A DNA stretch of 48,864 nucleotides from Granulicella sp. (GTDB lineage Bacteria > Acidobacteriota > Terriglobia > Terriglobales > Acidobacteriaceae). Every line of letters starts with the position of its first letter. The first letter of the stretch is position 1. The translations under genes and the position numbers were made by a program. The notes beneath the pieces were generated by a model that saw nothing but the letters and a program-made list of their open reading frames with translations, searched no databases and was not told the origin of the DNA. The stretch is taken from contig PKWU01000044.1 in assembly GCA_003132145.1 (NCBI GenBank), positions 1 through 48,864 on the forward strand, given 5' to 3'. Below are positions 21,617 through 35,910 of this stretch, one piece after another.

Positions 21617-23185
21617 CTACCGGCTGTGGCCTGAGGGTGGCAGGCTGGAATGGCTGTTGACGGAGGACGCTGCAGACGGTGTGGTTGCGGAGGTTGCGCG
21701 CAGGCTGGAACTGGCGGAGTTGGCCAGGTGGAGGATGTTGCCGGGCAAAATGCCGAGCAGAAGCGTGGCAGCGGCGGTGAGCGTGAGGCCGATCCCCGCC
21801 GGAATGCTGATCGTTGGTGTTGCAGTGAGGCTGGCGCCGGTCTCTTTCGCGGTCTGGTCAACGGGCGCGGGGGCGGTCTCGGCGGGCTTCGTGTAGACCG
21901 AGCTGAGCAGCCTCAGGTAGTAGAAGCAGGCAACGCCGCTGTTGAGCAGACCGATGACGGCGAGCCAGATGTTGCCGGCCTGGATCGCGGCACTGAAGAC
22001 ATAGAACTTGCCGAAGAAGCCGCCGGTGAAGGGAATCCCGATCAGCGAGAGCAGGAAGAAGGCAAGCAGCGCGGCCAGCACGGGACGCCGCATCGCGAGG
22101 CCATGGTAGTCTTTGAAGCTGCGCAGCGTCTCTTTGTATCCACCAACCTGGGTGACGACGGCGAAGGCCCCAACATTCATCGCGGCGTAGGCTGCGGTGT
22201 AGAAGCAAGCGGCAGAAATGCCTGCGGCAGGAAACGCCGTGAAGGCGGCCAGCAGGTAGCCCGCGTGCGCAATGCTGGAGTAGGCCAACATTCGCTTCAC
22301 GTCGGTCTGCTTCAGCGCGCCGAGGTTGCCAATGGTCATGGAGAGTGCGGCCAGGCCCCACATCAGCATCGCCCAGCGGGTCTGCATCTGCGGGAATCCG
22401 CAGAAGGTGATGCGCAGCAGGACCGCGAATGCCGCGGCCTTGGGCGCGGTGGACATCAGCCCGACCACCGGCGCCGGCGCTCCCTGGTAGACATCCGGCG
22501 TCCACAGGTGGAATGGCGCGGCGGAGACCTTAAAGCCCAGGCCGACCAGCATCATGGCCAGACCGAGGAAGGCCATGCGAGGAGTGGCGCTGGTGGCGAG
22601 GCCCGCTGCGATGGCGGCAATGCTGGTCGATCCCGTCGCGCCGTAGGCCAGCGCGATGCCGTAAAGGAAAAATGCCGTGGCAAAGGAGCCAAGCAGAAAA
22701 TATTTAATCGAGGCTTCGACCGCCGTGCCGTGTCCCTTGCGGAAGCCCGCGAGGATGTAGGTCGAGATGGAGGAGATTTCGAGGCCGATGAAGACCATCA
22801 GCAGCTCGGTCGAGCAGGTCATCAACATCATGCCGACCGCGCCGAACAGAACCAACGCGAAGTACTCGCCCGCATGGCTTGCGTGGCCATCGAAGTAATC
22901 CAGCGAACCGAGCAGCGTGGCCACAACCACCGCGCCGATCAGCAGATGGAAGAAGATGCTGAAGGCGTCCACCTGGATGTTGCCGCTGAAGGCGGTGAGC
23001 ACGCCGAGGCGAAGCTGATACCAACTGATGAAGCCCGTTGACGCTGTTCCCGCGATGGCCAGCCAGCCCAGCGGCTTGCGGCTTGTGCCGGGCTTCAGCA
23101 CCGCCTCGATCAGCATGATGAGGACGCCGGTGAGTGTGAGAACGTACTCGGGCAGCAGCGCGATCACGGATGTGGGAAGGTTCAT
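21617..23185 (-). CDS. nuoN: NADH-quinone oxidoreductase subunit N
   Basis: Antiporter-like proton-pumping membrane subunit of complex I, 522 residues and about 14 helices. The key glutamate sits in [19 protein letters not shown], and the broken-helix region in [26 protein letters not shown] with its lysine. The start is set by the ATGA overlap with nuoM (ATG 23185-23183, nuoM stop 23184-23182); the frame stays open upstream but is there only a shadow of nuoM. The C-terminus carries a Ser/Ala/Thr-rich tail of about 35 residues. It is the last nuo gene. A CGACGG/CCGTCG stem (21546-21570) lies downstream and could be part of a terminator or the amtB leader. Confidence 0.95.
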
Positions 23186-24759
23186 CGGCGCGCGCCTCCG
23201 GTGGTGGTTTGAGGCGAAGTCGTCTGTAGCGCCGCGGGGTCGGCGGGCGGCGTTGCATGGATGGCTGCGAAGTGATCGGCCATCGACGCGCCGTAGCTGT
23301 CGATGGCGCGCATCCAGAGCGACGGGCAGAGGCCCATTGCGAGGAAGAGCGCGACCACAGGCCACAGAGCGATGTGTTCGCGCGCGTCCAGGTTCCACCC
23401 GGCAACCGCTTGCGGCTTGGGGCCAAGCTCGCAGTAGAAGACGCGCTGGATCATCCGCAGCATGTACGCCGCGCTGAGAATGACGCCGGTGGCTGCCAGC
23501 GCGGTCAACAGGTGATGGTGCGCGAAGGGCGACTGCATGGAGCCGGAGAGAATCAGGAACTCGCCGACGAAGCTGTTCAGTATGGGCAGGCCGATGATGG
23601 AGAGCGTCACCAGAACGAACACCGTGGCCACCCAGGGCAGCCGTTGCGCCAGCCCGCCGTACTGGCGCATGTCGTAGGTGCCGTAGCGCTCGTAGAGTAG
23701 GCCGAGCAGCATGAAGAAGGCTGCGCCAGCGAGGCTCTCGTTCAGAATTTGATAGATGCCGCCGTCCAGGCCCGCAATGGTGAACGTGAAGATGCCCAGC
23801 ATAATGAAGCTGAGTTGGCCCAGCGTGGAGTAGGCGGCGAGCTTCTTCAGGTCGTTCTGCACCAGCGCCAGCAGCCCGCCGTAGACGATGCCGATGGCAG
23901 CCAGCGCGATCATCAGCGGCGCGACGCGATGCGACTGCTCGGGGAAGATGGCGAACGAGAAGCGCAGCATGGAGTAGAGCGCCGTTTTGCCCGCCAACAC
24001 CATCACGGCAGCGGTGGGTGCCTCGGAGATGGCGTCGACCAGCCAGCCGTGCAGCGGGAAAACGGGGACCTTGACCGCGAAGGCCAGCAGAAAGCCCAGC
24101 GATGCAATCCACAGCGCGCCGGCGTTGGGCGAGATTGCATGTTGCGTGGCGAGTGCGGCCAGCTTCGGCAGATCGAAGGTGCCCGTCTGCGCATAGAGCC
24201 AGAGCATCGCGGCCAACAGCAGCCCTGACGGGATGAAGGCGTAAAGAAAATATTTGATCGCTGCGCGGCGGCGCTTCTCGCTGCGGCCGAAGGTGGCGAT
24301 AAGGACCGTCATCGGCACCAGCGACATCTCCCAGAATGCGTAGTAGAGAAACATGTCGAGCGAGACGAAGATGCCCATCATCGCAACCTGCTGCAGCAGG
24401 AACAGAACATAGAAGAGCTTCTTGCGCTGGTCGATGGCGCGCCACGAAATCAGCACTCCGAGCGGCGCGAGCAGGCCGGTCAGCACCATCAGCCACATCG
24501 ACAGGCCGTCGACGCCGAGGTGGTAGTGGATGGCTGGTGCGGCGATCCACGGCACATTCCGCTCGAACTGGAAGCCGCCCGGATGGCTCGCATACGAGTA
24601 GTGAAACGGCAGATGAAGCGTTAGCACGAAGGTGAGCAGTGTGACGGCGAGCGCGGCCCACTGCATCGTCTTGCCGCGGTCGGGCAGAAGCGTGAGCACG
24701 AGCGCTCCGGCCAGCGGCACGAAGACGATGAGGCTCAGAATGATGTGGTCGATGTTCAT
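23182..24759 (-). CDS. nuoM: NADH-quinone oxidoreductase subunit M
   Basis: Antiporter-like proton-pumping subunit, 525 residues. Family hallmarks: [27 protein letters not shown], the essential glutamate in [22 protein letters not shown], the lysine helix in [26 protein letters not shown] and [11 protein letters not shown]. The last residues ([13 protein letters not shown] tail of low complexity) extend past the final helix. It begins 7 bases after nuoL and ends overlapping nuoN. Confidence 0.95.
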
Positions 24760-24766
24760 CGTCTCC

Positions 24767-26755
24767 TCACAGGTGACCCCACATCGATTGACCGAAGAGC
24801 ATTACGGCGATCACAGCGGCGGCGCCGATGGCGAGCCATCCGGCGTAGGAGCGGATGTTGCCGGATATCTGCTTGCGCTCGATCCATGCCAGGCCGCGCG
24901 TTGCCGCTCCTGCCGCCTGGCCGGAGCCGTTGACAACTCCGCGCTCGACGACAATTTCCAGGATTCCGCGCGTGAACATCAGCAGCGGCGTAATCAGAAA
25001 TGCGTTGTAGAATTCGTCCACCCAGTACTTGTTCTTGACGACCGCGTAGGCGCGGCTGTTGCGCTCAGCGAGCGCGTCTGCGGTTCCCGGCTTCTCGTAG
25101 TAGAAGACGTAGGCGATGTAGAAGCCCGCGACTGCAACCAGAACGGAAACGAGGGTCAGGACGAGTTCGAGGGCGTGGCCGGTTGTGGCTGCGACGGCTT
25201 CGGCGGCCGTTCCATTTGTGAAGACCGGATCGAGGAATCGCTCCATTCCGTTGTTGCCGCCAAGCGCGGCGGGGATTCCAACCCATCCGCCGGTGACCGA
25301 AAGAAACGCGAGAACGACCAGCGGCAGCAGCATGAACCACGGCGACTCATGAATGCTGTGATGCGCGGTGGCGTGTGGATCGACGCGCGGCTCGCCGAAG
25401 AATGTCTTGAACCAGAGGCGGAACATGTAGAAGGAGGTCATGCCCGCGGTGGCCAGTCCGATGAGCCACAGAACAATGTGCAGCGGGTTGTTTGAGGCGA
25501 AGGTACGGTAGAGAATCTCATCCTTGGAGAAGAATCCCGCAAACGGCGGAATCCCAGCGATTGCGAAGACGCCCGCGCTCATGCACCAGAATGTGATAGG
25601 CGTTCGCGTGCGCAGTCCGCCCATCTTGCGCATGTCCTGCTCGCCGGAGAGCGCGTGAATGACAGAGCCAGCGGCGAGGAAGAGCAGTGCCTTGAAGAAA
25701 GAATGCGTCAGCAGGTGGAAGATCCCGGCGGCGTAGGCTCCCACTCCGCAGGCCATGAACATATAGCCGAGCTGCGAGATGGTGGAGTAGGCCAGCACTC
25801 GCTTGATGTCATGCTGCACCATGCCGATCGAGGCCGCAAAGATCGCCGTGGCCGCGCCGATGATCGCAACCACGCTGAGTGCAAGCGGCGAGCTGTTGAA
25901 GAGGACATGGCAGCGCGCGACCATGTAGATGCCTGCCGTCACCATCGTTGCCGCGTGGATCAGCGCGGAGACTGGCGTGGGACCCTCCATCGCGTCGGGC
26001 AGCCAGATGTAGAGCGGAATCTGCGCGGACTTGCCCGCCGCGCCAAGGATCAGCAGCAAGCAGATGGTGGGCAGGAAGTGCGCGCCCTGCTGCTGCCACT
26101 GGGGGTTCTGCGCGATGTCGGTGAAGACTTGCGAGAAGTCGAGGCTTCCGAAGTGGACGACAAGCAGGAACATCGCCAGCAGAAAGCCGAAGTCGCCGAT
26201 GCGGTTGACGATGAAAGCCTTCTTGCCTGCGTTGGCGGCAGATGCTTTCTTGAAGTAGAAGCCGATCAGCAGGTACGAGCAGAGACCCACGCCCTCCCAG
26301 CCGACGAAGAGAAGCAGGAAGTTAGCGGCCAGCACCAGCACCGACATGAAGAACATGAAGAGGTTGAGATACGCAAAGAAGCGCCAATAGCCCTCCTCGT
26401 GCGCCATGTATCCGACCGAGTAGATGTGGATGAGGAAGCCGACGCCGGTGACCACGCCGAGCATGATCAGCGTGAGGTGATCGACGGTGAAGGCAAAGTC
26501 GGCGTGGAAGCCGGTGATTGCGATCCATCCATATCCATAGGGCCGGATCACCGATTCGATTGTATTGGGTGCGCCGGAGGTGCACATCGTCGTCCACAGC
26601 CACGCGACCAGCGCGGCGGGCGCGGCGGTGAAGAGCAGCGCCACTGTGCTGACGACGGCGCGCGGCAGCCTTCGCCCCAGCGTCCCGTTGATGAGGAAGC
26701 CGGCGAAGGGAAGCAGCGGAATGAACCAGATGGTACTTGCAGGCATGGGGTTCAT
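24767..26755 (-). CDS. nuoL: NADH-quinone oxidoreductase subunit L
   Basis: Largest antiporter-like subunit of complex I, 662 residues, including the long amphipathic lateral helix region near the C-terminus. Motifs: [24 protein letters not shown], the glutamate in [57 protein letters not shown] and [29 protein letters not shown]. Its ATG overlaps the nuoK stop (ATGA arrangement at 26752-26755); a second ATG three codons in is an alternative. Confidence 0.95.
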
Positions 26756-27054
26756 GATTTCATCAGGTCGATCTCGTCGACGTTCAGCGTCTGGCGCGTG
26801 CGGTAGATGGAGATGATGATGGCGAGTCCGACCGCGGCTTCAGCCGCTGCGACCACCATCACGAAGAAGACGAAGATCTGCCCGCTCACCTGATGCCACA
26901 TGTGTGCGAAGGCGACGAAGGTCAGATTGACGGCGTTAAGCATCAGCTCGATCGAGATGAAGATCGTAATAACATTGCGCTTGATCAGGAACGCGGCAAT
27001 GCCGATGGAGAACAACATCGCAGCAAGGATGAGGTAGTACGCTGTGGGCACCAT
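26752..27054 (-). CDS. nuoK: NADH-quinone oxidoreductase subunit K
   Basis: Small three-helix membrane subunit, 100 residues, homologous to ND4L. The two conserved membrane glutamates are in [17 protein letters not shown] and [19 protein letters not shown]. Start [18 protein letters not shown] is typical. It begins 1 base after the nuoJ stop and overlaps nuoL by 4 bases. Confidence 0.95.
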
Positions 27055-27055
27055 G

Positions 27056-27562
27056 CTATTGCTCCTTCCGCGCGAGGACGACTGCGCCCAGGATGGCGAC
27101 GAGGATGAGGATCGAGGTGACCTCGAAGGGCAGCAGTTGTTTGGTGAAGAGCATCGCGCTGACCTCGGCGATGTTGTCGGTAGCGCTGCTCAGGTCGCCG
27201 CCGATGTTGGAGGACTTCAGCGCACCGCGCTCCGACAGAAATACAAAGCTGAGCAGGCAGAAGATCGCCGCCGCTCCGGGGATGCCGACCGCGTATGCGG
27301 CTCGGCTGCCGCGGGTGCGCTGTTCCGTGCCCGCGTTCAGCAGCATGATGACAAAGACGAACAGCACCATGATCGCGCCCGAGTAGACGATGACCTGCGC
27401 GGCAGCGAGGAACTCCGCGCCCAGCGACCAGTACAGCACCGCCAGCGACATCATCACCACCACCAGCGAGAGCGCGCTGTGGATGGGGTGGCGCTGCAAG
27501 AGCAGGTTCAGTGCCCCGCCCAGTGCCAGTGCGCCAAAGATGATGAAGAGTGCAAGTTGCAT
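27056..27562 (-). CDS. nuoJ: NADH-quinone oxidoreductase subunit J
   Basis: Membrane subunit homologous to ND6, 168 residues, five helices, with [23 protein letters not shown] and the conserved [23 protein letters not shown] helix. The start at 27562 ([16 protein letters not shown]) is preferred over an open upstream extension to 27685, which lacks family sequence. The nuoH-nuoJ gap of 100 bases, where nuoI normally lies, holds no gene. Confidence 0.94.
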
Positions 27563-27662
27563 GGGTTCCGCCGAGTCCTTCGTTTGATGCGTGCAGCGAC
27601 GATCAATTCCGTTTCTGGTGCAGAAGCTGTTGGTTATCCAGTGATTGTAAAGCAGTGCGGAG

Positions 27663-28730
27663 TTACCCCCGCATGGCGATGACAAAGCTGGTGACGATGA
27701 TGTTGGCCATGGCGAGCGGCAGCAGAAACTTCCAGCCGAAGCTCATCAGTTGGTCGTAGCGGAAGCGCGGCAGAGTGCCCCGCACCCAGATGTAGAGGGC
27801 GAGAAATGCGAAGACCTTGGCGACAAACCAGCAGACCGGAAAGACGGCGTTCAGAACTGGTGTGTTAAAAAAATCGTTGAAGATGTGTCCGAAGGGGCTG
27901 CTCGCGCCGCCGAAAAACAGCAGCGTGGCCACGCAACTAACGGTGATCATGTTGGCGTACTCGGCCATGAAGAACATGGCGAACTTCATGGAGCTGTACT
28001 CGGTGTGGTAGCCGGCGACCAGTTCGTTCTCAGCCTCGGGCAGGTCGAACGGCGCGCGGTTGGTCTCGGCGAAAGCGGCCATCAGGTAGATGAAGAAGGC
28101 GACAATCTGGAAGCCGCCAAAGATGTTCCACGAGAGAGCGCCGTGGGCGGACTGGCTGTTGACGATCGTGCGCAGGTTCAGCGACTGCGCGCGCAGCACA
28201 ACGCCCACCAGCGAGAGACCGAGGGCAAGCTCGTAGCTGATCACCTGCGCGGTGGAACGAAGCGAGCCGAGCAGCGAATACTTGTTGTTCGACGACCAGC
28301 CGGAGAGCGTGATTCCGTATACGCCGATCGACGTGATGCCAAGAATGACCAGCAGGCCTATATTGACGTTGGCGATCTGGAAGAGGTCCACTCCATGCAC
28401 TCGAGTGACCGCACCGAAGGGCACCACGGCGACTGAGATGAGCGCGCAGCCAAGTGCGATGATGGGTGCGAGAATGAACAGCGGACGCTCCGCGGCGAGT
28501 GGGTTCATGTCTTCCTTGAGGAAGCTTTTTGCGCCGTCCACCAGCGGCTGTAGCAGACCGAACGGCCCGACGCGGCTGGGGCCCCAGCGGTTCTGCATGC
28601 GCGCCAGCAACTTGCGTTCGAGCAACACGGTGTAGGCCACCGCAAGCAGCAGGATGACCAGCACCACCGCAACCTTGAGCACGCTCAGGAGCAGAAAAAG
28701 TTCGAAGTTGGTCAGGTGGGTCAAGGTCAC
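27663..28730 (-). CDS. nuoH: NADH-quinone oxidoreductase subunit H
   Basis: Membrane subunit forming the quinone chamber at the junction with the peripheral arm, 355 residues, eight or nine helices. Motifs: LLERKLLARMQNRWGPSRVGPFGLLQPLVDGAKSF, the ERPLF loop, FFIYLMAAFAETNRAPFDLPEAENELVAGYHTEYSSMKFA and WVRGTLPRFRYDQLMSFGWKFLLP. The likely start is GTG at 28730, 9 bases after the nuoG stop. Its two usual contact partners NuoB and NuoI are not encoded here. Confidence 0.95.
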   Translation of the reverse strand: MTLTHLTNFELFLLLSVLKVAVVLVILLLAVAYTVLLERKLLARMQNRWGPSRVGPFGLLQPLVDGAKSFLKEDMNPLAAERPLFILAPIIALGCALISVAVVPFGAVTRVHGVDLFQIANVNIGLLVILGITSIGVYGITLSGWSSNNKYSLLGSLRSTAQVISYELALGLSLVGVVLRAQSLNLRTIVNSQSAHGALSWNIFGGFQIVAFFIYLMAAFAETNRAPFDLPEAENELVAGYHTEYSSMKFAMFFMAEYANMITVSCVATLLFFGGASSPFGHIFNDFFNTPVLNAVFPVCWFVAKVFAFLALYIWVRGTLPRFRYDQLMSFGWKFLLPLAMANIIVTSFVIAMRG

Positions 28731-28739
28731 TCTCGGTTT

Positions 28740-31181
28740 CTAGTCGGATGCTGTCTGTACGTCGATCTGAATCAGGGATTGCCGTGGTCGGAATTGCCGC
28801 AGGTCGTTGAGGATCGCCGAATAGCGGCCAAGCGAGCCGGAGGTGAAAAGCGTGTCGCCGGCGGGCAGCACGAGGTCGCGGCGATTGCTGATCTGCACCA
28901 GGCCCGCGTTGTCGCGGATGGGCGCGGCCGCGGGCGAGAGGTGCTGGTCGTTGCCGGAGAGCAGTTGCAGCCGCAGTATTTCGTAGCCGGGAACGAGGCG
29001 CTGAATCTCGTCGAGGATCGCCGAGGGATCGAACGGGCTGAGGCGCGGCTCCAGATTGTTGGCGGTGAGCCAGACGGCGTGACGGTCGGCCTCGCCCGAC
29101 TGCGCGCCGCGCGTCTGGCCCATGTCCGCGCGGGTTCCCCCCGCATTGGAGACTGGCCCGAATGGAACGAGCTTGCGGACGTCGGCGCCCATCTTGTCTG
29201 CGATGCGCACGATCGTCTCGAAGTCGCTGCGCACGCCGGCGCGGTCGCCAGCTTTTTTGACCTGTTGCAGGTCGCCGTAGCTGTTGGTCACCGAGCCGGA
29301 TTTCTCGTAGAGGTTCGCGGCGGGAAGAACGACGTCGGCGATTGCGGCGGTCTCGGTGAGGAACATCTCCTGCACCACGACGAAGGTGTTCTTCAGCGTA
29401 GCGGGATCGACCGCGTAACGCGCGATGGGGTTCGACCCGACGACGTAGAACGCGGAGAGATTGCCTGTTTCGGCGGCCTCGAAGATCTCCAGCAGATCGA
29501 GGCCGGGCGTGGTGGGCGATCTGTACTCAAGGGCGATGCGGCTACTGGGGTCCTGCGTGTCGATGGGGCCGATGGGCGTGTAGCCGGGCAGCATGTCGGG
29601 CAGCAGGCCCATGTCTGCCGCGCCGCGCGAGTTGGCGTAGTCGGCCAGCAGCGCGAACTTCGTGCCTGGAATCGTGAGGCCGAAGTCGATGAGGCGCTTC
29701 AGCTCGGCGCCGCGCAGATCGTTGCCGATGAGGACCAGCAGCGACTCCTCGCTCCTGATCGCATCGCGAAAGCTGGCGAGCGCTGCGCTGTCTGGGGCGG
29801 CGATGTTGGCGGCGGAGTCGTCACCGGCGAGGAACGCCGCGAGCGCACCATAGCCATACTCCGCAACCTGCAGGAAGGCACTGGCCTGGCGGCGCAGCTT
29901 GATCTCTGCCGTGTTCGCAATGTAGAGCCTCGCTCCGTTGAGGCGGACGTTGCTGCGCAGGTTCCACGCCGTCGCGGGACTTTGGTTGGTAGGATCGCCG
30001 CCGACCAAGAGCACCGCCGGCGCGGTCAGCGTCTCGCGCAGCGACGCCGCGCGCCCTGTAGTTCCAGCCAGCGATTGCGCGAAGGCAACGTAATCCGCTG
30101 TGCGGTGGTGGTCGATGTTGTTGGTATGTAGCACGGAGCGCGCGAACTTTTGCAGCAGGTAGGCCTCTTCGTTGGTCAGCCGGTTGCCGCCGATCACGCC
30201 AATCGTCTTGCCGCCGCGTGTGTCGCGCAGCTCGGCAAACTTCTTGCCAACGCATGTGAGCGCCTCCTCCCAACTGACGGCCTTCAGCTCGCCGTTGGGC
30301 TGGCGCACCAGCGGCTGCGTGATTCGCTCGCTGCTGTTGGCAAAATCGAATGCGTAACGTCCTTTGTTACATAAAAAGTCGCTGTTAATGCCGGACTTGT
30401 CGCGGTTGTCTCCGCGAACGATCTCCGAACCATCCGCCGTGGAGCGCACGCCGAGCGTGGTCTTGCATCCGTCGCCGCAGTGCGTGCAGACGGTCGCAAC
30501 GTGGTTCATCTCCCACGGCCGCGTCTTATATCTATAAGTTCCGCTGGTCAACGCGCCCACCGGGCAGACGTCGATGCACATGCCGCACTGCTCGCAGTCC
30601 AGATGCGCGAGGTTGTCGGGAGTGAGCTTGGCGGGGACGTTGGGCACGATGGTGGACGACGAGCCGCGGTTCTCCACCGCCAGCGCGAAGACGTCCATGC
30701 CCTCGCTGCACGTCCTCACGCAGCGATAGCACAGGATGCAGCGTGGCCGGTCGAAGTACACCACCGGCGACCACTTCTGCTCCTCGCGATGGTTCTTCGG
30801 CTCGGCGTAGAAGCTGTCCGCCGCGCCGTACTTGAAGGTCATGTCCTGCAACTCGCACTCGCCGCCCGCGTCGCACACCGGGCAGTCCAGCGGGTGGTTC
30901 CCCAGCAGCATTTGCAGCGTGGCCTTGCGCGCCTGGATCACCTCCGGCGTATCGGTGAAGAAGACCTGCCCCTCGGCGATCTGCGTGGTGCATGCGGTCT
31001 GCAGCTTCGGCACTTTTTCCTGGCGCACGACGCACATGCGGCATGCCGCCTGCAGGCTCAGGCCGGGGTAGTAGCAGAACGCAGGGATCTCGATGCCCGC
31101 ACTCTTGCACACCTCAATCAGCAGCGAGCCCGCCGGTGCGGTGATCTTCTTGCCATCTACGGTAATGGTTACGTCAGCCAT
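28740..31181 (-). CDS. nuoG: NADH-quinone oxidoreductase subunit G
   Basis: Largest peripheral-arm subunit, 813 residues, molybdopterin-oxidoreductase type. Iron-sulfur ligands seen in order: a 2Fe-2S set in the N-terminal ferredoxin domain (IPAFCYYPG, AACRMCVV, HPLDCPVCDAGGEC), the His-containing N5 region, 4Fe-4S sets CILCYRCVRTC and CEQCGMCIDVCP, and CTHCGDGCKTTLG with a later LCNKGRY, matching the extra N7 cluster of some bacteria. ATG at 31181 has AGGGA 6 bases before it and starts MADVTITVDGKK, the family start; an upstream ATG at 31205 is less likely. A 46-residue membrane ORF ends 24 bases upstream. Confidence 0.94.
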   Translation of the reverse strand: MADVTITVDGKKITAPAGSLLIEVCKSAGIEIPAFCYYPGLSLQAACRMCVVRQEKVPKLQTACTTQIAEGQVFFTDTPEVIQARKATLQMLLGNHPLDCPVCDAGGECELQDMTFKYGAADSFYAEPKNHREEQKWSPVVYFDRPRCILCYRCVRTCSEGMDVFALAVENRGSSSTIVPNVPAKLTPDNLAHLDCEQCGMCIDVCPVGALTSGTYRYKTRPWEMNHVATVCTHCGDGCKTTLGVRSTADGSEIVRGDNRDKSGINSDFLCNKGRYAFDFANSSERITQPLVRQPNGELKAVSWEEALTCVGKKFAELRDTRGGKTIGVIGGNRLTNEEAYLLQKFARSVLHTNNIDHHRTADYVAFAQSLAGTTGRAASLRETLTAPAVLLVGGDPTNQSPATAWNLRSNVRLNGARLYIANTAEIKLRRQASAFLQVAEYGYGALAAFLAGDDSAANIAAPDSAALASFRDAIRSEESLLVLIGNDLRGAELKRLIDFGLTIPGTKFALLADYANSRGAADMGLLPDMLPGYTPIGPIDTQDPSSRIALEYRSPTTPGLDLLEIFEAAETGNLSAFYVVGSNPIARYAVDPATLKNTFVVVQEMFLTETAAIADVVLPAANLYEKSGSVTNSYGDLQQVKKAGDRAGVRSDFETIVRIADKMGADVRKLVPFGPVSNAGGTRADMGQTRGAQSGEADRHAVWLTANNLEPRLSPFDPSAILDEIQRLVPGYEILRLQLLSGNDQHLSPAAAPIRDNAGLVQISNRRDLVLPAGDTLFTSGSLGRYSAILNDLRQFRPRQSLIQIDVQTASD

Positions 31182-31205
31182 CAAGAATCCCTGTTCCTGC
31201 TGCAT

Positions 31206-31346
31206 TTAATTCTGGTGCGACCTCTGAATCAAAATCTCCTGATCGGCGCTTCGGTGTTGCATCCTCGAGTGGATCAGCACGCCGAGAACAAATACTGCAA
31301 ATGTCAGCGCGAGAACTACGGCGATCCTCAGCCCGCGATCGCTCAA
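31206..31346 (-). CDS. Small single-span membrane protein between nuoF and nuoG (46 residues)
   Basis: Not in any family I recognise. Read on the minus strand from a TTG at 31346, which overlaps the nuoF stop as TTGA, to a TAA at 31206-31208. The product has a basic N-terminus (MSDRGLR), one hydrophobic segment at residues 8-25 (AVVLALTFAVFVLGVLI) and a polar, basic tail (HSRMQHRSADQEILIQRS). The overlap with nuoF, the tight 24-base spacing to nuoG, and membrane-like sequence filling the whole gap argue for a real coupled gene. It could be a small accessory or assembly subunit of complex I. The TTG start and short length leave doubt. Confidence 0.6.
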   Translation of the reverse strand: MSDRGLRIAVVLALTFAVFVLGVLIHSRMQHRSADQEILIQRSHQN

Positions 31347-32677
31347 TGTCCCACTCCAATTAAATCGCGCTCCTCGGGCATAAGTGCGGTTCCGGCCTTC
31401 TTGCCTTCGATGTAATCCTCAAACTCCTTGCGGAACTTTTTGACGAAGCCCAGCGTGGGCATCGCCGCCGCGTCGCCGAACGGGCAGAAGGTCCGGCCCA
31501 TCATGTTTTCCGCGATGTACTGCACGGTGTCGATGTCCTTCTTCGCGCCTCCGCCCTCGTAGACGCGGGTCAGCGTCTTCTTGATCCAGTCGGTGCCCTC
31601 GCGGCATGGAATACACCATCCGCAGCTCTCGTGCTGGTAGAACTGGATCGTCCGCAGGGCGAACTCAACGATGGAGACGGTCTCGTCGAGCACGACAATC
31701 CCTCCCGACCCCAGCATCGATCCGGCCTTCGCCAGTTGGTCGAAGTCCAGGCCGATGTCGATCTCGTCGGCGCGCAGCACGGGGCAGGATGCGCCGCCGG
31801 GGACGACGGCCTTCAACTGCTTGCCGCCGCGAACGCCTCCGGCTACTTCATAAATTGCCCTTCGCAGCGAGTAGCCCATCGGCAGCTCATACACGCCGGG
31901 CCGCTCGACGTGGCCGCTAATTCCAAACAGGCGCGTGCCGCCGTTGCGCTCCGTACCCAGTGCCGCGTAAGCCTCGCCGCCCATCAGCAGAATGTGCGGC
32001 ACGTTGGCGATGGTCTCCGCGTTGTTGATGATCGTCGGCCCGTCATACAGGCCCACCACAGCAGGGAAGGGCGGTCGAATGCGTGGCACACCGCGCTTGC
32101 CCTCCAGCGACTCCATCAGCGCCGACTCCTCGCCCACCTCGTACGCCCCCGCGCCGGTCTGCGTGATGATGTCGAAGTCCAGGCCGGACCCAAAGATGTT
32201 TTTGCCCAGGAAGCCCTTCGCGTAGGCGTCGGCGACCGCGCGCTCCATAATCTCCAGCAGAGTGCGATACTCACCGCGCAGATAGATGAAGCCGGTCTTC
32301 GCGCCGATGGCCAGTCCCGCGATCATCGCACCCTCGATCACCGCATGCGGGTCTTCGCGGAAGATGAGGTGGTCCTTGCACGTCCCCGGCTCGCTCTCGT
32401 CGCCGTTCACCAGCACATACTTTGGCTTGGCCGAAGTCTTCGGCACAAAGCTCCACTTCATCCCGGTGGGGAATCCCGCGCCGCCGCGCCCGCGCAGCCC
32501 GCTGGACTTCATGGTGTCGATGATCCAGCCCGGCATCGCCTCCGCGCCCTGCGCAATGGCCTTCTGCACTGCCGCATAGCCGTCCAGCTCGATGTACCGG
32601 TCGATCTTCGCCGCGCCCTGGCCGAAGCGCCGCTTCAGCACGATGACTTCATCGGGATGGGATACAAGACGCGGCAT
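31343..32677 (-). CDS. nuoF: NADH-quinone oxidoreductase subunit F
   Basis: Peripheral subunit, 444 residues, binding FMN, NADH and cluster N3. The FMN/NADH glycine-rich loop is SSGLRGRGGAGFPTGMKWSF, and LVNGDESEPGTCKDHLI and GAYEVGEESALMESLEGKRG follow. Cluster N3 ligands are in ESCGWCIPCREGTDW plus the distal cysteine in TFCPFGDAAAMPTLGF. Its start overlaps the nuoE stop by one base. The C-terminus (RDLIGVGH) overlaps the TTG of the following small ORF. Confidence 0.95.
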   Translation of the reverse strand: MPRLVSHPDEVIVLKRRFGQGAAKIDRYIELDGYAAVQKAIAQGAEAMPGWIIDTMKSSGLRGRGGAGFPTGMKWSFVPKTSAKPKYVLVNGDESEPGTCKDHLIFREDPHAVIEGAMIAGLAIGAKTGFIYLRGEYRTLLEIMERAVADAYAKGFLGKNIFGSGLDFDIITQTGAGAYEVGEESALMESLEGKRGVPRIRPPFPAVVGLYDGPTIINNAETIANVPHILLMGGEAYAALGTERNGGTRLFGISGHVERPGVYELPMGYSLRRAIYEVAGGVRGGKQLKAVVPGGASCPVLRADEIDIGLDFDQLAKAGSMLGSGGIVVLDETVSIVEFALRTIQFYQHESCGWCIPCREGTDWIKKTLTRVYEGGGAKKDIDTVQYIAENMMGRTFCPFGDAAAMPTLGFVKKFRKEFEDYIEGKKAGTALMPEERDLIGVGH

Positions 32678-33201
32678 TACTTCCCGTCCTTTTGCGTGCT
32701 GTCGAGAATCTTCCCGGCGGCGTACTGGTCGAGAATCTCATCGACCTTGTCCGGGGTCAGCTCGTCGTGGAACTCGTAGTTGACCTGCATGGCCGGCGCG
32801 GAGCAGCAGTCGCCGATGCACTCCACCTCTTCCAGCGAGAACTGGCCGTCGGGCGTGGTCTGTTTGTTCTCGATGCCCAGCTTCTTCTTGCAGTGGTCGA
32901 GGATCTCGTAGCCGCCGCGCAACATGCAACTGATGTTGGTGCACACCTGCACGTTGTATTTTCCGGCGGGTTTGGTCCGCAGCATGGAGTAGTAGCTCAG
33001 CACCGAGCGCACGTCGAGATCGAACAGGTCCAGCCGCTGCGCGACCTCCTGAATCACCGCCTCCGACACATAGCCCACCTCGTCCTGCGCGTACAGCAGC
33101 ATCGGCACCAGCGCCGAGCGCTTCACCGGGTACAGCGTCACCAGCTTGTCAAACCGCGCCGCCAGCTCCGGCGAAAAAATCGAATTGGCAATCGTGCTCA
33201 C
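32677..33201 (-). CDS. nuoE: NADH-quinone oxidoreductase subunit E
   Basis: Thioredoxin-fold 2Fe-2S subunit (cluster N1a), 174 residues. The four ligands are in VCTNISCMLRGG and ECIGDCCSAPAMQVN. The helical N-terminus (FSPELAARFDKLVTLYPVKRSALVPMLLYAQDEVGYVS) is standard. The start codon is GTG at 33201; a GGAGA-led three-codon ORF (MQE, stop overlapping as GTGA) lies directly before it and may aid coupling to the upstream ORF. Confidence 0.94.
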   Translation of the reverse strand: MSTIANSIFSPELAARFDKLVTLYPVKRSALVPMLLYAQDEVGYVSEAVIQEVAQRLDLFDLDVRSVLSYYSMLRTKPAGKYNVQVCTNISCMLRGGYEILDHCKKKLGIENKQTTPDGQFSLEEVECIGDCCSAPAMQVNYEFHDELTPDKVDEILDQYAAGKILDSTQKDGK

Positions 33202-33218
33202 TCTTGCATTATCTCCGG

Positions 33219-33509
33219 TTACATCTTTACCAGCTTAGCCGCAAGGCGTTCCACGGCTAACTCCACATCTAAATTCTCGCCATCCAATGTGATGTTGCCA
33301 TCTGTCGACATTGACCATGGTCCCGCAGTCTCGTCGACATTTATAACCAACCAACTTCCAATGCCGCTTTCCGTATTGATCCATATGCTCAATATTTCGG
33401 CGGCAGTACTTATGAACACTTCATTCTCGAACGGCTCATCGATCTTCACACCGCCCAGCTTTCCTGATATTTCCAGCGCCGCTAGATGAGAACGGAATTG
33501 GCTAACCAT
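33219..33509 (-). CDS. Hypothetical 96-residue protein inside the nuo operon
   Basis: I do not recognise this family. The ORF lies between nuoD and nuoE in operon direction, ending 17 bases before nuoE. It is acidic, has no cysteine and no membrane segment. It reads as a small alpha/beta protein: a helical start (VSQFRSHLAALEISGKLGG), beta-like stretches (ENEVFISTAAEILSIWI, SWLVINVDE) and a final amphipathic helix (VELAVERLAAKLVKM). The local GC content is lower than in the nuo genes. ATG at 33509 is chosen; an in-frame TTG at 33566 is next to repeat DNA. A real gene seems likely, a role in complex I unproven. Confidence 0.5.
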   Translation of the reverse strand: MVSQFRSHLAALEISGKLGGVKIDEPFENEVFISTAAEILSIWINTESGIGSWLVINVDETAGPWSMSTDGNITLDGENLDVELAVERLAAKLVKM

Positions 33510-33574
33510 CGAGACCCAAAGTTCGTGGCGTATAAGCGTGTTCCGGTCGGATTGAGGCTCTTGCAACTCAATAC

Positions 33575-33643
33575 CTCAGGGGCTAAAGCCCGTCCTTCTT
33601 TTCATCTCTGCGGCACGGCTAAAGGCGTGCCCTTAAGCAAAAC
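33575..33643. repeat. Double-hairpin intergenic repeat between nuoD and the 96-residue ORF
   Basis: GGGCTAAAGCCC (33580-33591 region) and GGCACGGCTAAAGGCGTGCC (about 33613-33632) form two hairpins joined by a T/C-rich spacer and end at the nuoD stop. From memory, 'ggggctaaagccc ... ggcacggctgaagccgtgcc' elements recur between genes in Acidobacteriaceae; I could not check this here. It lies within the operon transcript. Confidence 0.65.
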
Positions 33644-33644
33644 G

Positions 33645-34925
33645 CTATCTGTCGATCTCTCCCAGCACAATGTCGATGCTTCCGATTACGGCGACTACAT
33701 CAGCCAGCAGCCGGCCCTTGCACATAGTCTCCAGGGCTTGCAGCGTGGCGAAGCTGGGATTCCGCATGTGTACGCGATACGGTTTGGCCGTCCCATCCGA
33801 GACGACGTAGTATCCCATCTCGCCGCGCGGGCTCTCCACCGCCTGATAGACCTCGCCCGCTGGCACCGCGAACCCTTCGGTCACAATCTTGAAGTGATGG
33901 ATCAACGCCTCCATCTCGGTCTTCATCTTCTCGCGGTTGGGCAGCACGATCTTGGGTGCGTCGGCCACAATCGGCCCGGGCTTTCCGTCCGCTCCGCGAG
34001 GCAGGCCCTCCAGCATCTGCATCGCCTGATGGCATATCTTCACCGACTCGCGCATCTCCAGCATGCGTACGACGTACCGCGCCCAAACATCGCCGTCGTT
34101 CGATACGGGCACGTCAAACTTGAACCTCTCGTAGCCGGAGTAGGGCATATCGCGGCGTAGGTCCCAATCCACTCCGCTGGCGCGCAGCGGCGGCCCGGTG
34201 ACGCCCAGCGCGATGGCCTGCGCAGCCGTAAGTGTGCCGACGCCCTTCAGCCGTCCCATCCAGATTGGGTTGCCCGTCAGCAGGCCCTCGTACTGGTCGA
34301 TGTGCGCGGGCATGGTGTCAAGGAAGGTCTGCACCGTCTCGAAGAATCCCATCGGCGGCTCCAGCGCCAGCCCCCCGATGCGGAAGTAGCTGGTCATCAT
34401 GCGCTGGCCGCTGACCGCCTCGAAGATGCGCATGGTGGCTTCGCGCTCGCGCCAGCAGTACAGGAACATCGTCAGCGCGCCGATGTCCATAGCGTGCGTG
34501 CCCAGCCACACCAGGTGCGACTCGATGCGCGTGATTTCGTTGAGCAGCACGCGCAGCAACTGGGCGCGCTCGGGAATCTCCAGTCCCAGCAGCTTCTCCA
34601 CCGCCAGGCAATACGCCAGGTTGTTGGTCATCGGGCAGAGATAGTCGACGCGGTCGGTCAGCGGGACAACCTGCTGGTAGAATTTGGCCTCGCATGTCTT
34701 TTCGATGCCGGTGTGCAGGTAGCCGATATCGGGTGCCAGCGAGACGACGATCTCGCCGTCCAGCTCCAGCACCATGCGCAGCACGCCGTGGGTTGACGGA
34801 TGCTGCGGCCCCATGTTGAGCACCATGGAGTGCTCTCCCGTGCCCGCGTTGCCGTGGCGCTTCGCGTCGGCAATGACGTCTTCGACGCCGGGAGTGATCC
34901 TGTCGGAAGCGGTGATGGGTGCCAT
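33645..34925 (-). CDS. nuoD: NADH-quinone oxidoreductase subunit D
   Basis: 49-kDa-type subunit lining the quinone site, related to NiFe-hydrogenase large subunits, 426 residues. Motifs: MVLNMGPQHPSTHGVLRMVLELDGE (with the quinone-site histidine), GYLHTGIEK, VDYLCPMTNNLAYCLAVEKLLGLEIPERA and RNPSFATLQALETMCKGRLLADVVAVIGSIDIVLGEIDR at the C-terminus. About 30 extra residues precede the conserved core. It starts 45 bases after nuoC; that gap holds a GAACCTTG-type repeat. Confidence 0.95.
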   Translation of the reverse strand: MAPITASDRITPGVEDVIADAKRHGNAGTGEHSMVLNMGPQHPSTHGVLRMVLELDGEIVVSLAPDIGYLHTGIEKTCEAKFYQQVVPLTDRVDYLCPMTNNLAYCLAVEKLLGLEIPERAQLLRVLLNEITRIESHLVWLGTHAMDIGALTMFLYCWREREATMRIFEAVSGQRMMTSYFRIGGLALEPPMGFFETVQTFLDTMPAHIDQYEGLLTGNPIWMGRLKGVGTLTAAQAIALGVTGPPLRASGVDWDLRRDMPYSGYERFKFDVPVSNDGDVWARYVVRMLEMRESVKICHQAMQMLEGLPRGADGKPGPIVADAPKIVLPNREKMKTEMEALIHHFKIVTEGFAVPAGEVYQAVESPRGEMGYYVVSDGTAKPYRVHMRNPSFATLQALETMCKGRLLADVVAVIGSIDIVLGEIDR

Positions 34926-34945
34926 CAGCGGTGCCTGCCTTTGTC

Positions 34946-34967
34946 TCGAACCTTGTGCCTTGAACCT
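34946..34967. repeat. GAACCTTG-type repeat in the nuoC-nuoD gap
   Basis: CTCGAACCTTGTGCCTTGAA with CCT following matches the unit seen (in the opposite orientation) at 5458-5494 inside the pilin leader. It fills about half of the 45-base gap. Confidence 0.5.
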
Positions 34968-34970
34968 GTC

Positions 34971-35462
34971 TTATCGGTAGCCTTCGACGGGATAGTCCTT
35001 GCGCAGCGGATGTCCCTCCCAGTTTTCGGGCATCATAATGCGGGTGAGGCGTGGATGGCCGGCGAAGTCGATGCCGAAGAGGTCGAAGACCTCGCGCTCG
35101 TAAAAGTTTGCCGCGGGCCACACGGATGTGATTGAGGGAACGCTCGCGGCGGTCGAATGCAGCATGACGCGCAGGCGAATCCGCTGCTTCAGGCTGTGCG
35201 AGAGGATGTGGTAGGAGAGTTGGAAACGCGGCTCCTGCGGAAACCAGTCAACGGCGGTAACGGTCTCGAAGAAGTTGTATCCCGCGGCTTTGACGGCCTC
35301 ACACGCTGCAACGATAGACTCGCGCGCGACGGTGATCGTCAGCTCATCGCGGTCGAACTTCGCGTCGGTGGCAAGCTCGCTGAGCGCCACGACGGCCGGG
35401 TTCTCCGCCATCGCCTCGAAGACGAAGGTCTTGCCTGTGAGCGCACTTGCCGGATCGTACAT
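34971..35462 (-). CDS. nuoC: NADH-quinone oxidoreductase subunit C
   Basis: 30-kDa-type peripheral subunit, 163 residues, not fused to NuoD as in E. coli. Conserved C-terminal signature: SVWPAANFYEREVFDLFGIDFAGHPRLTRIMMPENWEGHPLRKDYPVEGY. Its ATG directly abuts the nuoA stop codon (TAAATG), leaving no room for nuoB, which normally sits between nuoA and nuoC. Confidence 0.94.
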   Translation of the reverse strand: MYDPASALTGKTFVFEAMAENPAVVALSELATDAKFDRDELTITVARESIVAACEAVKAAGYNFFETVTAVDWFPQEPRFQLSYHILSHSLKQRIRLRVMLHSTAASVPSITSVWPAANFYEREVFDLFGIDFAGHPRLTRIMMPENWEGHPLRKDYPVEGYR

Positions 35463-35876
35463 TTACAAGTCTCCCTTGTCGTACGACCAGTTGAGAATGC
35501 CCTTCTTCCACACATAGAAGAGGCCGACGGCGACAAAGCCGAGGTAGACCAGCATCTCCCAAAAGCCGAACATCGGCGAGCCGGTGATGGCCGGCAGACG
35601 GCGGAAGATCACCGCCCACGGCAGCAGGAAGACCGCCTCCACATCGAACAAGATGAAGAGCATTGCCACCATGTAGAAGCGCACAGAGAAGCGGCCCCGC
35701 GCGTCGCCCACCGGGTCCATACCGCATTCGTAGGGGTCCAGCTTGACGCGGTAGTTGCGGTGCCTGCCGACGAAGTAGGACGCCACCACCATGCCGCCGG
35801 CGATGCCCAGCGCGCCCACAATATGCAGCGCCAGGGGAAGGTAGTTCCAGATGTATGGAGTTGTCTGCATCGCCAT
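35463..35876 (-). CDS. nuoA: NADH-quinone oxidoreductase subunit A
   Basis: Three-helix membrane subunit homologous to ND3, 137 residues. Conserved loop and helix: VKLDPYECGMDPVGDARGRFSVRFYMVAMLFILFDVEAVFLLPWAV. ATG at 35876 (MAMQTTPY) or 35870 (MQTTPY) can start it; the first lies only 5 bases from the -10 box of a good promoter, so a leaderless or nearly leaderless mRNA is possible. First gene of the nuo cluster. Confidence 0.94.
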   Translation of the reverse strand: MAMQTTPYIWNYLPLALHIVGALGIAGGMVVASYFVGRHRNYRVKLDPYECGMDPVGDARGRFSVRFYMVAMLFILFDVEAVFLLPWAVIFRRLPAITGSPMFGFWEMLVYLGFVAVGLFYVWKKGILNWSYDKGDL

Positions 35877-35881
35877 CTTCG

Positions 35882-35910
35882 ACTCTAGAATCGGGCCGGT
35901 CAAGTGTCAA
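35882..35910 (-). promoter_or_regulatory. Sigma-70-type promoter of the nuo operon
   Basis: On the minus strand TTGACA (35910-35905), a 17-base spacer and TAGAGT (35887-35882) match the -35 and -10 consensus (6/6 and 4/6). The expected transcription start falls at about 35875-35876, at or next to the first nuoA ATG. Confidence 0.6.

What the first reader, a model, noticed from the sequence alone, without database searches (positions are those of the whole stretch)
31206..31346. Unannotated-looking 46-residue membrane ORF locked between nuoF and nuoG
The TTG start overlaps the nuoF stop (TTGA) and the stop lies 24 bases before nuoG. The product has a basic head, one 18-residue hydrophobic span and a basic tail. 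Operon genes that overlap like this are usually translated, and complex I has many small lineage-specific single-span subunits in other organisms. A new accessory or assembly subunit is possible.
Basis: partly seen in the sequence, partly recalled or inferred. Interest (0 to 1): 0.7.

Follow-up and report, generated by a model that had tools for sequence, protein, structure and literature searches.

The report
Tiny membrane protein inside complex-I operon
A tiny gene wedged between two genes of the respiratory enzyme complex I in some acidobacteria has been kept by selection as a protein, is predicted to cross the membrane once, and likely serves as an extra part or assembly helper of that enzyme.

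Summary
The ORF is real and under selection as a protein. It lies on the minus strand (31346 to 31206): a TTG start overlapping the nuoF stop (TTGA), 46 codons, stop 24 nt before the conserved nuoG start. In the same genus, 15 of 58 genomes with this locus carry a homologue directly after nuoF, 13 with the same TTGA overlap. pN is below pS in 91 of 91 pairs of the 14 full-length copies; codon-model omega is 0.27, and omega = 1 fits far worse (2 x delta lnL 84.6). The first protein-database search gave 116 short homologues at E <= 1e-3; 148 of 153 members share a tail S-x-D-[QR]-x-I-L. No Pfam or NCBIfam model matches over its cut-off. No member was found in the gaps of 84 loci from other genera, nor a convincing one in family, class and phylum samples. 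Likely role, untested: a lineage-restricted single-span accessory or assembly subunit of complex I, comparable to NdhP or CydX. Against: 43 of 58 genus loci lack it, and no Nuo residues co-vary with it. The coding claim is supported; the complex I role is plausible only.

The parts
31206..31346 (-). 46-codon small gene, TTG start to TAA stop, predicted single-span membrane protein
   Evidence: homologues in the same place in 15 of 58 genus loci; omega 0.27
31343..31346 (-). TTGA overlap of the small gene's start with the nuoF stop
   Evidence: same overlap with TTG in 13 of 15 carriers, CTG in one, GTG 4 nt after the stop in one
31354..31357 (-). GGAG Shine-Dalgarno-like site inside the last nuoF codons, 7 nt before the TTG
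   Evidence: GGRG at exactly 7 nt in 10 of 15 carriers
31272..31325 (-). hydrophobic span, residues I8-I25
   Evidence: Sequence; model helix 3-45
31218..31253 (-). conserved tail, residues R32-S43 (RSADQEILIQRS)
   Evidence: S-x-D-[QR]-x-I-L in 148 of 153 members
31343..32677 (-). nuoF, upstream gene
   Evidence: PF01512, PF10589; TIGR01959 over its cut-off
28740..31181 (-). nuoG, downstream gene (conserved start)
   Evidence: PF00384, PF10588, PF13510, PF22117; start placed by relatives

Best explanation
The ORF is a gene under purifying selection for a small, predicted single-span protein sitting in line with nuoF and nuoG, and the protein likely works as a lineage-restricted accessory or assembly subunit of respiratory complex I. 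Shown by sequence: position, TTGA overlap, Shine-Dalgarno-like site, conserved tail and selection on the protein. Predicted: ribosomes ending nuoF start again at the overlapping TTG and then pass on to nuoG; the protein inserts with its N-terminus out and its conserved tail in the cytoplasm. Inferred and untested: the span packs against the membrane arm of complex I, while the tail lies at the cytoplasmic surface as a short amphipathic helix and braces the complex or an assembly intermediate, as NdhP is needed for cyanobacterial NDH-1L. It is dispensable, since most genus members examined lack it.
For: Same place in 15 of 58 genus loci, always directly after nuoF, and in 13 of them nuoG starts 1-63 nt after its stop (in G202 the contig ends, in G228 nuoG is matched only from residue 115). 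Genus-wide, all 14 strong profile matches (E <= 8.2e-9) lie in this gap. Overlapping start in 14 of 15 (13 TTG, 1 CTG) and GGRG 7 nt upstream in 10 of 15. pN < pS in 91 of 91 pairs; omega 0.272, lnL -1546.45 against -1588.74 at omega 1. 116 database homologues at E <= 1e-3 with an almost invariant tail. Model: one confident helix, mean pLDDT 89. Charge bias predicts N-out/C-in (93 of 116). Precedents for tiny single-span subunits of respiratory enzymes: NdhP, CydX, CcoM.
Against: 43 of 58 genus loci lack it and so do 84 of 84 loci of other genera, so it is not needed for complex I as such. A scan of 12 Nuo subunits over six carrier/non-carrier contrasts found 118 consistent columns against 95-153 in 32 label swaps, and its best column (4 of 6) was below the best of most swaps. 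No complex I chain among 14 PDB matches at E <= 10. Complex I 21 kDa subunit (PF10785) matches only 2 of 43 members, best E 0.086. The neighbours of the database homologues outside the genus loci are unknown. No expression or interaction data.
Confidence: 0.6

Rival explanations
1. A real small membrane protein that merely rides in the nuo operon for expression and acts on something else, for example another membrane enzyme or the envelope.
For: Patchy presence and no co-variation with Nuo subunits. The same gap also hosts unrelated-looking genes in some relatives, so position alone is a weak guide.
Against: One fixed place and tight coupling with nuoF in all 15 carriers, and no strong second copy elsewhere in 62 genus genomes.
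Confidence: 0.3
2. Only a translational coupler: ribosomes are carried from nuoF to nuoG and the peptide itself does nothing.
For: Start overlaps the nuoF stop and the stop often lies close to nuoG. NuoF end and start signal are tuned together.
Against: Strong selection on the amino acids and an almost invariant tail. In 32 of 42 measured non-carriers nuoG simply abuts nuoF (gap -1 to 5 nt), so no spacer is needed.
Confidence: 0.04
3. A diverged CcmD-like protein of cytochrome c maturation.
For: Weak matches: Pfam CcmD in 7 of 43 members, best E 0.0062; NCBIfam CcmD in 5 of 43, best 0.018; two automatic database names say heme exporter protein D.
Against: All below cut-off (window protein 13.2 against 25.6 bits). 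Other single-span models do as well (DUF4094 in 8 of 43). The window ORF was not among the CcmD matches of its own genome at E <= 10. The neighbours tested are nuo genes.
Confidence: 0.03
4. A small hydrophobic toxin-like peptide that happens to sit in an insertion-prone gap.
For: The same gap holds toxin-antitoxin-looking genes in some relatives (identified by eye). One of 43 members has a sub-threshold Hok match, E 0.0037.
Against: One fixed position in all 15 carriers, a charged conserved tail, and no partner gene seen between nuoF and nuoG in the window.
Confidence: 0.02

Closest known systems
NdhP / NdhQ, single-transmembrane peptides below 5 kDa of cyanobacterial NDH-1 (PMC4131877, abstract read)
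   Same: About 5 kDa, one predicted span, tied to a complex I relative; NdhP is needed for NDH-1L formation.
   Different: No sequence link found here; NdhP was found in the purified complex, this one only as a gene; gene setting and tail motif differ.
CydX of cytochrome bd oxidase (PMC4325964, abstract read)
   Same: Small single-helix protein encoded with the respiratory enzyme it belongs to; lineage-limited; few highly conserved residues; many homologues unannotated.
   Different: Different operon and enzyme; no family match; here no co-variation with the neighbours was found, whereas CydX shares mutual information with the CydA Q-loop.
CcoM, 36-aa subunit of cbb3 oxidase (PMC10433244, passages read)
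   Same: Tiny subunit of a respiratory oxidase.
   Different: Different enzyme; no sequence comparison made here.
Known bacterial complex I accessory subunits: NDUFA9-like in Mycobacterium smegmatis; NDUFA12-, S4- and S6-like in Paracoccus (PMC12361115, passages read)
   Same: Extra subunits added to the 14 core subunits in some bacteria.
   Different: Those have mitochondrial counterparts, so that survey, built on mitochondrial profiles, would not be expected to see this one. That they are larger and not of this single-span type is recalled.

Membership tests
Accessory subunit of complex I | Gene in or tied to the nuo operon | tested here: met
   Between nuoF and nuoG in the window and directly after nuoF in 15 of 15 carriers
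Accessory subunit of complex I | Present in the purified complex | not testable with these tools
   Needs biochemistry or a structure
Accessory subunit of complex I | Membrane or matrix-side protein able to bind the complex | tested here: inconclusive
   Single span predicted; no binding test; no co-varying Nuo residues
NdhP / NdhQ | Sequence homology | tested here: inconclusive
   No NDH or complex I chain among 14 PDB matches at E <= 10 and no Pfam or NCBIfam match over a cut-off; whether those libraries hold NdhP was not checked
CydX | Encoded beside cydAB | tested here: not met
   Neighbours are nuoF and nuoG
CcmD | Match over the curated cut-off | tested here: not met
   13.2 against 25.6 bits in Pfam; 13.0 against 25.95 in NCBIfam
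CcmD | Encoded among ccm genes | tested here: not met
   Neighbours tested are nuo genes

The most novel reading that the evidence does not exclude
A complex I subunit invented inside a single bacterial genus: a gene born de novo in the insertion-prone nuoF-nuoG gap, starting as a TTG overlapping the nuoF stop, fixed as a single-span subunit with a signature tail, and then lost repeatedly. That would be a natural record of how a respiratory complex gains and sheds a subunit.
Probability: 0.25. Interest if true: 0.78.

Novelty: new member of a known kind. Interest (0 to 1): 0.55.

Why it matters
Bacterial complex I is usually described by 14 core subunits, and the bacterial extras named in the one survey opened here have mitochondrial counterparts (PMC12361115, passages). 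A selected, single-span protein built into the nuo operon of one genus, with carriers and non-carriers side by side, gives a tractable case for asking how respiratory complexes recruit new subunits and what a dispensable one does. It also supplies a motif and profile for a family that sources name only as hypothetical protein or by scattered automatic names.

Tried and rejected
Single-sequence search of 200 family genomes gave, besides the own genome, six weak matches (E 0.004 to 0.05), of which one (G098) later proved a true homologue; the family became visible through the nuoF-nuoG gap comparison and profile searches. Weak hits inspected: L053 (66-aa frame, span only), L087 and L002 (spans of larger proteins), L069 (anchor of a thioredoxin-like protein, E 3.8e-4, which also shares a few tail letters). 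These were judged chance, since only the span, or an unrelated larger protein, matched. G730 (E 3.3e-5, profile positions 8-37 inside a 299-aa frame) was set aside without reading its sequence. The other weak hits were not inspected one by one.

Structured RNA: z +1.16 and no Rfam match in 31 kb-region bases 30900-31700. Tandem repeats: none in 31100-31500. A fold search of the model was not run, because a lone helix would match very many chains. Co-variation scan: negative. Paper searches were seen as listings, apart from two abstracts and passages of two papers; no listed title or abstract start describes this family. The library leaves out most subscription papers. The one genome-contig scan gave 2 loci, whose contig lengths equal those of G267 and G207 already held.

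Full report
What is there. On the minus strand, nuoF (32677-31343) ends in CAT TGA. The TTG spanning that His codon and the stop opens a 46-codon frame that ends with TAA at 31208-31206, and the nuoG start conserved in relatives is at 31181. A GGAG lies 7 nt before the TTG. The product is a 7-residue head, an 18-residue hydrophobic span and a basic, His-containing tail. Pfam and NCBIfam have no match over a curated cut-off for it.

Is it a gene? In the genus of the own genome 62 genomes are held. 57 have a NuoF match at E <= 1e-125, and one more (G267) came in through the small ORF, giving 58 loci (57 fetched plus the window); four genomes gave no locus. A profile of the family finds the ORF in the nuoF-nuoG stretch of 15 of 58; one copy is cut by a contig end (G202), and in one nuoG is matched only from residue 115 (G228). 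Start codons are TTG overlapping the nuoF stop in 13 of 15, CTG in the same place in G216, and GTG 4 nt after the stop in G202; my script took the possible start nearest the overlap, and later in-frame starts exist in most. GGRG sits exactly 7 nt upstream in 10 of 15. Among the 14 full-length copies pN is below pS in 91 of 91 pairs (0.28-0.49 for the 14 closest pairs, median 0.58, maximum 0.89). A codon model gives omega 0.272 with lnL -1546.45; the best value with omega fixed at 1 on a kappa grid is -1588.74. The other reading frames are open in 0-7 of 14 copies. RNA structure does not explain the conservation.

How wide is the family? A first profile search of the protein database gave 117 proteins at E <= 1 out of 677 candidates, 116 of them at E <= 1e-3. 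Further searches gave 126 at E <= 10 out of the 7986 candidates scored (120 listed) and 128 at E <= 1 out of 2439 (120 listed), largely the same proteins. Candidates are chosen by shared 5-residue words, which favours tail-containing proteins, so motif frequencies are somewhat inflated. In 153 members examined (138 database proteins plus the 15 genus copies) S-x-D-[QR]-x-I-L is present in 148. Source names, where there are any, are hypothetical protein or scattered automatic names; three carry Acidobacteriaceae or Acidobacteriota names. Genome searches: genus, 14 of 62 with strong matches (E <= 8.2e-9); family, 398 genomes, no match as strong outside the genus, best 3.8e-4; class, 399, one non-genus match at 7e-4 in a larger protein; phylum, 347, one non-genus match at 3.3e-5 inside a 299-aa frame. 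In these large scans only the top 17 or 20 candidates per genome were scored, so weak relatives could be missed. Of 88 non-genus genomes with a NuoF match, I fetched or held 84 (L148-L231; G036, G074, G076 and G091 were left out); none has a profile match in the gap at E <= 1, and 82 have both nuoF and nuoG in the stretch. Two named contigs, both Granulicella sp. MAGs, carry it; Granulicella is in Acidobacteriota. Their contig lengths equal those of G267 and G207, and the genus label rests on that.

History. On a FastTree of eight concatenated Nuo proteins (midpoint root, supports not printed, some genes missing in some genomes) the carriers fall in six separate groups. Fitch parsimony needs 6 changes with an absent root, and Dollo parsimony 11 losses from one origin. 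Vertical descent with losses and exchange of the segment between relatives are both open. NuoF ends in the one-residue-longer form (GAGH, GAAH, GVGH or RAGH) in 15 of 15 carriers and 11 of 43 non-carriers (Fisher 2.6e-7, not corrected for kinship). In the window and most carriers this puts the GGAG-like site 7 nt from the overlapping start. Five non-carriers with nuoG abutting nuoF keep the longer end, with 10-11 nt to nuoG; I read that as a possible scar of loss, but many short-end genomes also have 11 nt because of a 3-nt gap, so this is weak inference. In non-carriers the gap is -1 to 5 nt in 32 of 42 measured and longer in 10.

Shape and topology. AlphaFold2 on a 43-row alignment gives one helix, residues 3-45, mean pLDDT 89, pTM 0.50. 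The C-flank is more positive than the N-flank in 93 of 116 members of 42 residues or more, the reverse in 5, tie in 18, which by the positive-inside rule predicts N-out, C-in. The conserved Ser-x-Asp-Gln could cap a short amphipathic tail helix (inference; the model shows no break).

Mechanism. The economical reading is an accessory or assembly subunit of complex I, made in step with its neighbours. Precedents are NdhP (PMC4131877, abstract) and CydX (PMC4325964, abstract). The span would sit in the membrane arm. The NuoEFG module is at the far tip of the peripheral arm (recalled), so direct contact with NuoF or NuoG in the finished enzyme is unlikely, and any tie to them would be during assembly. 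Against this reading: 43 of 58 loci do without it, and a scan of 12 Nuo subunits across six sister contrasts found 118 consistent columns, within the 95-153 of 32 label swaps, with a best column of 4 contrasts where most swaps reach 5.

Verdict. A real, selected small-protein family without a curated model, found, as far as searched, in one acidobacterial genus and in metagenomic sequences. Coding status is close to certain; the complex I role is likely but untested.

Noticed in passing
nuoF-nuoG gaps of relatives, e.g. G201, G214, G277, G263 and L151, L157, L161 (HicAB-looking), G222 and L148 (DsbA/thioredoxin-looking), G255, G262, G150 (others): The gap is an insertion hot spot: 10 of 42 measured genus non-carriers and 28 of 82 measured loci of other genera have long gaps (75 nt or more in the genus; over 120 nt elsewhere), several with different genes. 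Gene labels are by eye, not by a family search.
   Followed up: partly
window 21617-35903 (-): The nuo operon here shows nuoA, C, D, E, F, G, H, J, K, L, M and N but no NuoB: PF01058 matches only three other contigs of the genome, one of which looks hydrogenase-like by eye. nuoI was not searched for; nuoH and nuoJ overlap, leaving no room between them.
   Followed up: partly
window 33219-33566 (-): A 115-aa ORF without Pfam or NCBIfam match lies in the 443-nt gap between nuoD and nuoE; weak relatives in 2 of the 57 other genus loci (G196, G273).
   Followed up: partly
L069 (genome G348), 221-aa frame: The membrane anchor of a thioredoxin-like protein resembles the span and part of the tail of the family (E 3.8e-4); probably chance, but a possible clue to origin.
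   Followed up: no
window 31343-31357 (-) and the last nuoF codons across the genus: The final NuoF codons double as the Shine-Dalgarno-like site of the next gene, so protein end and start signal seem to constrain each other.
   Followed up: partly
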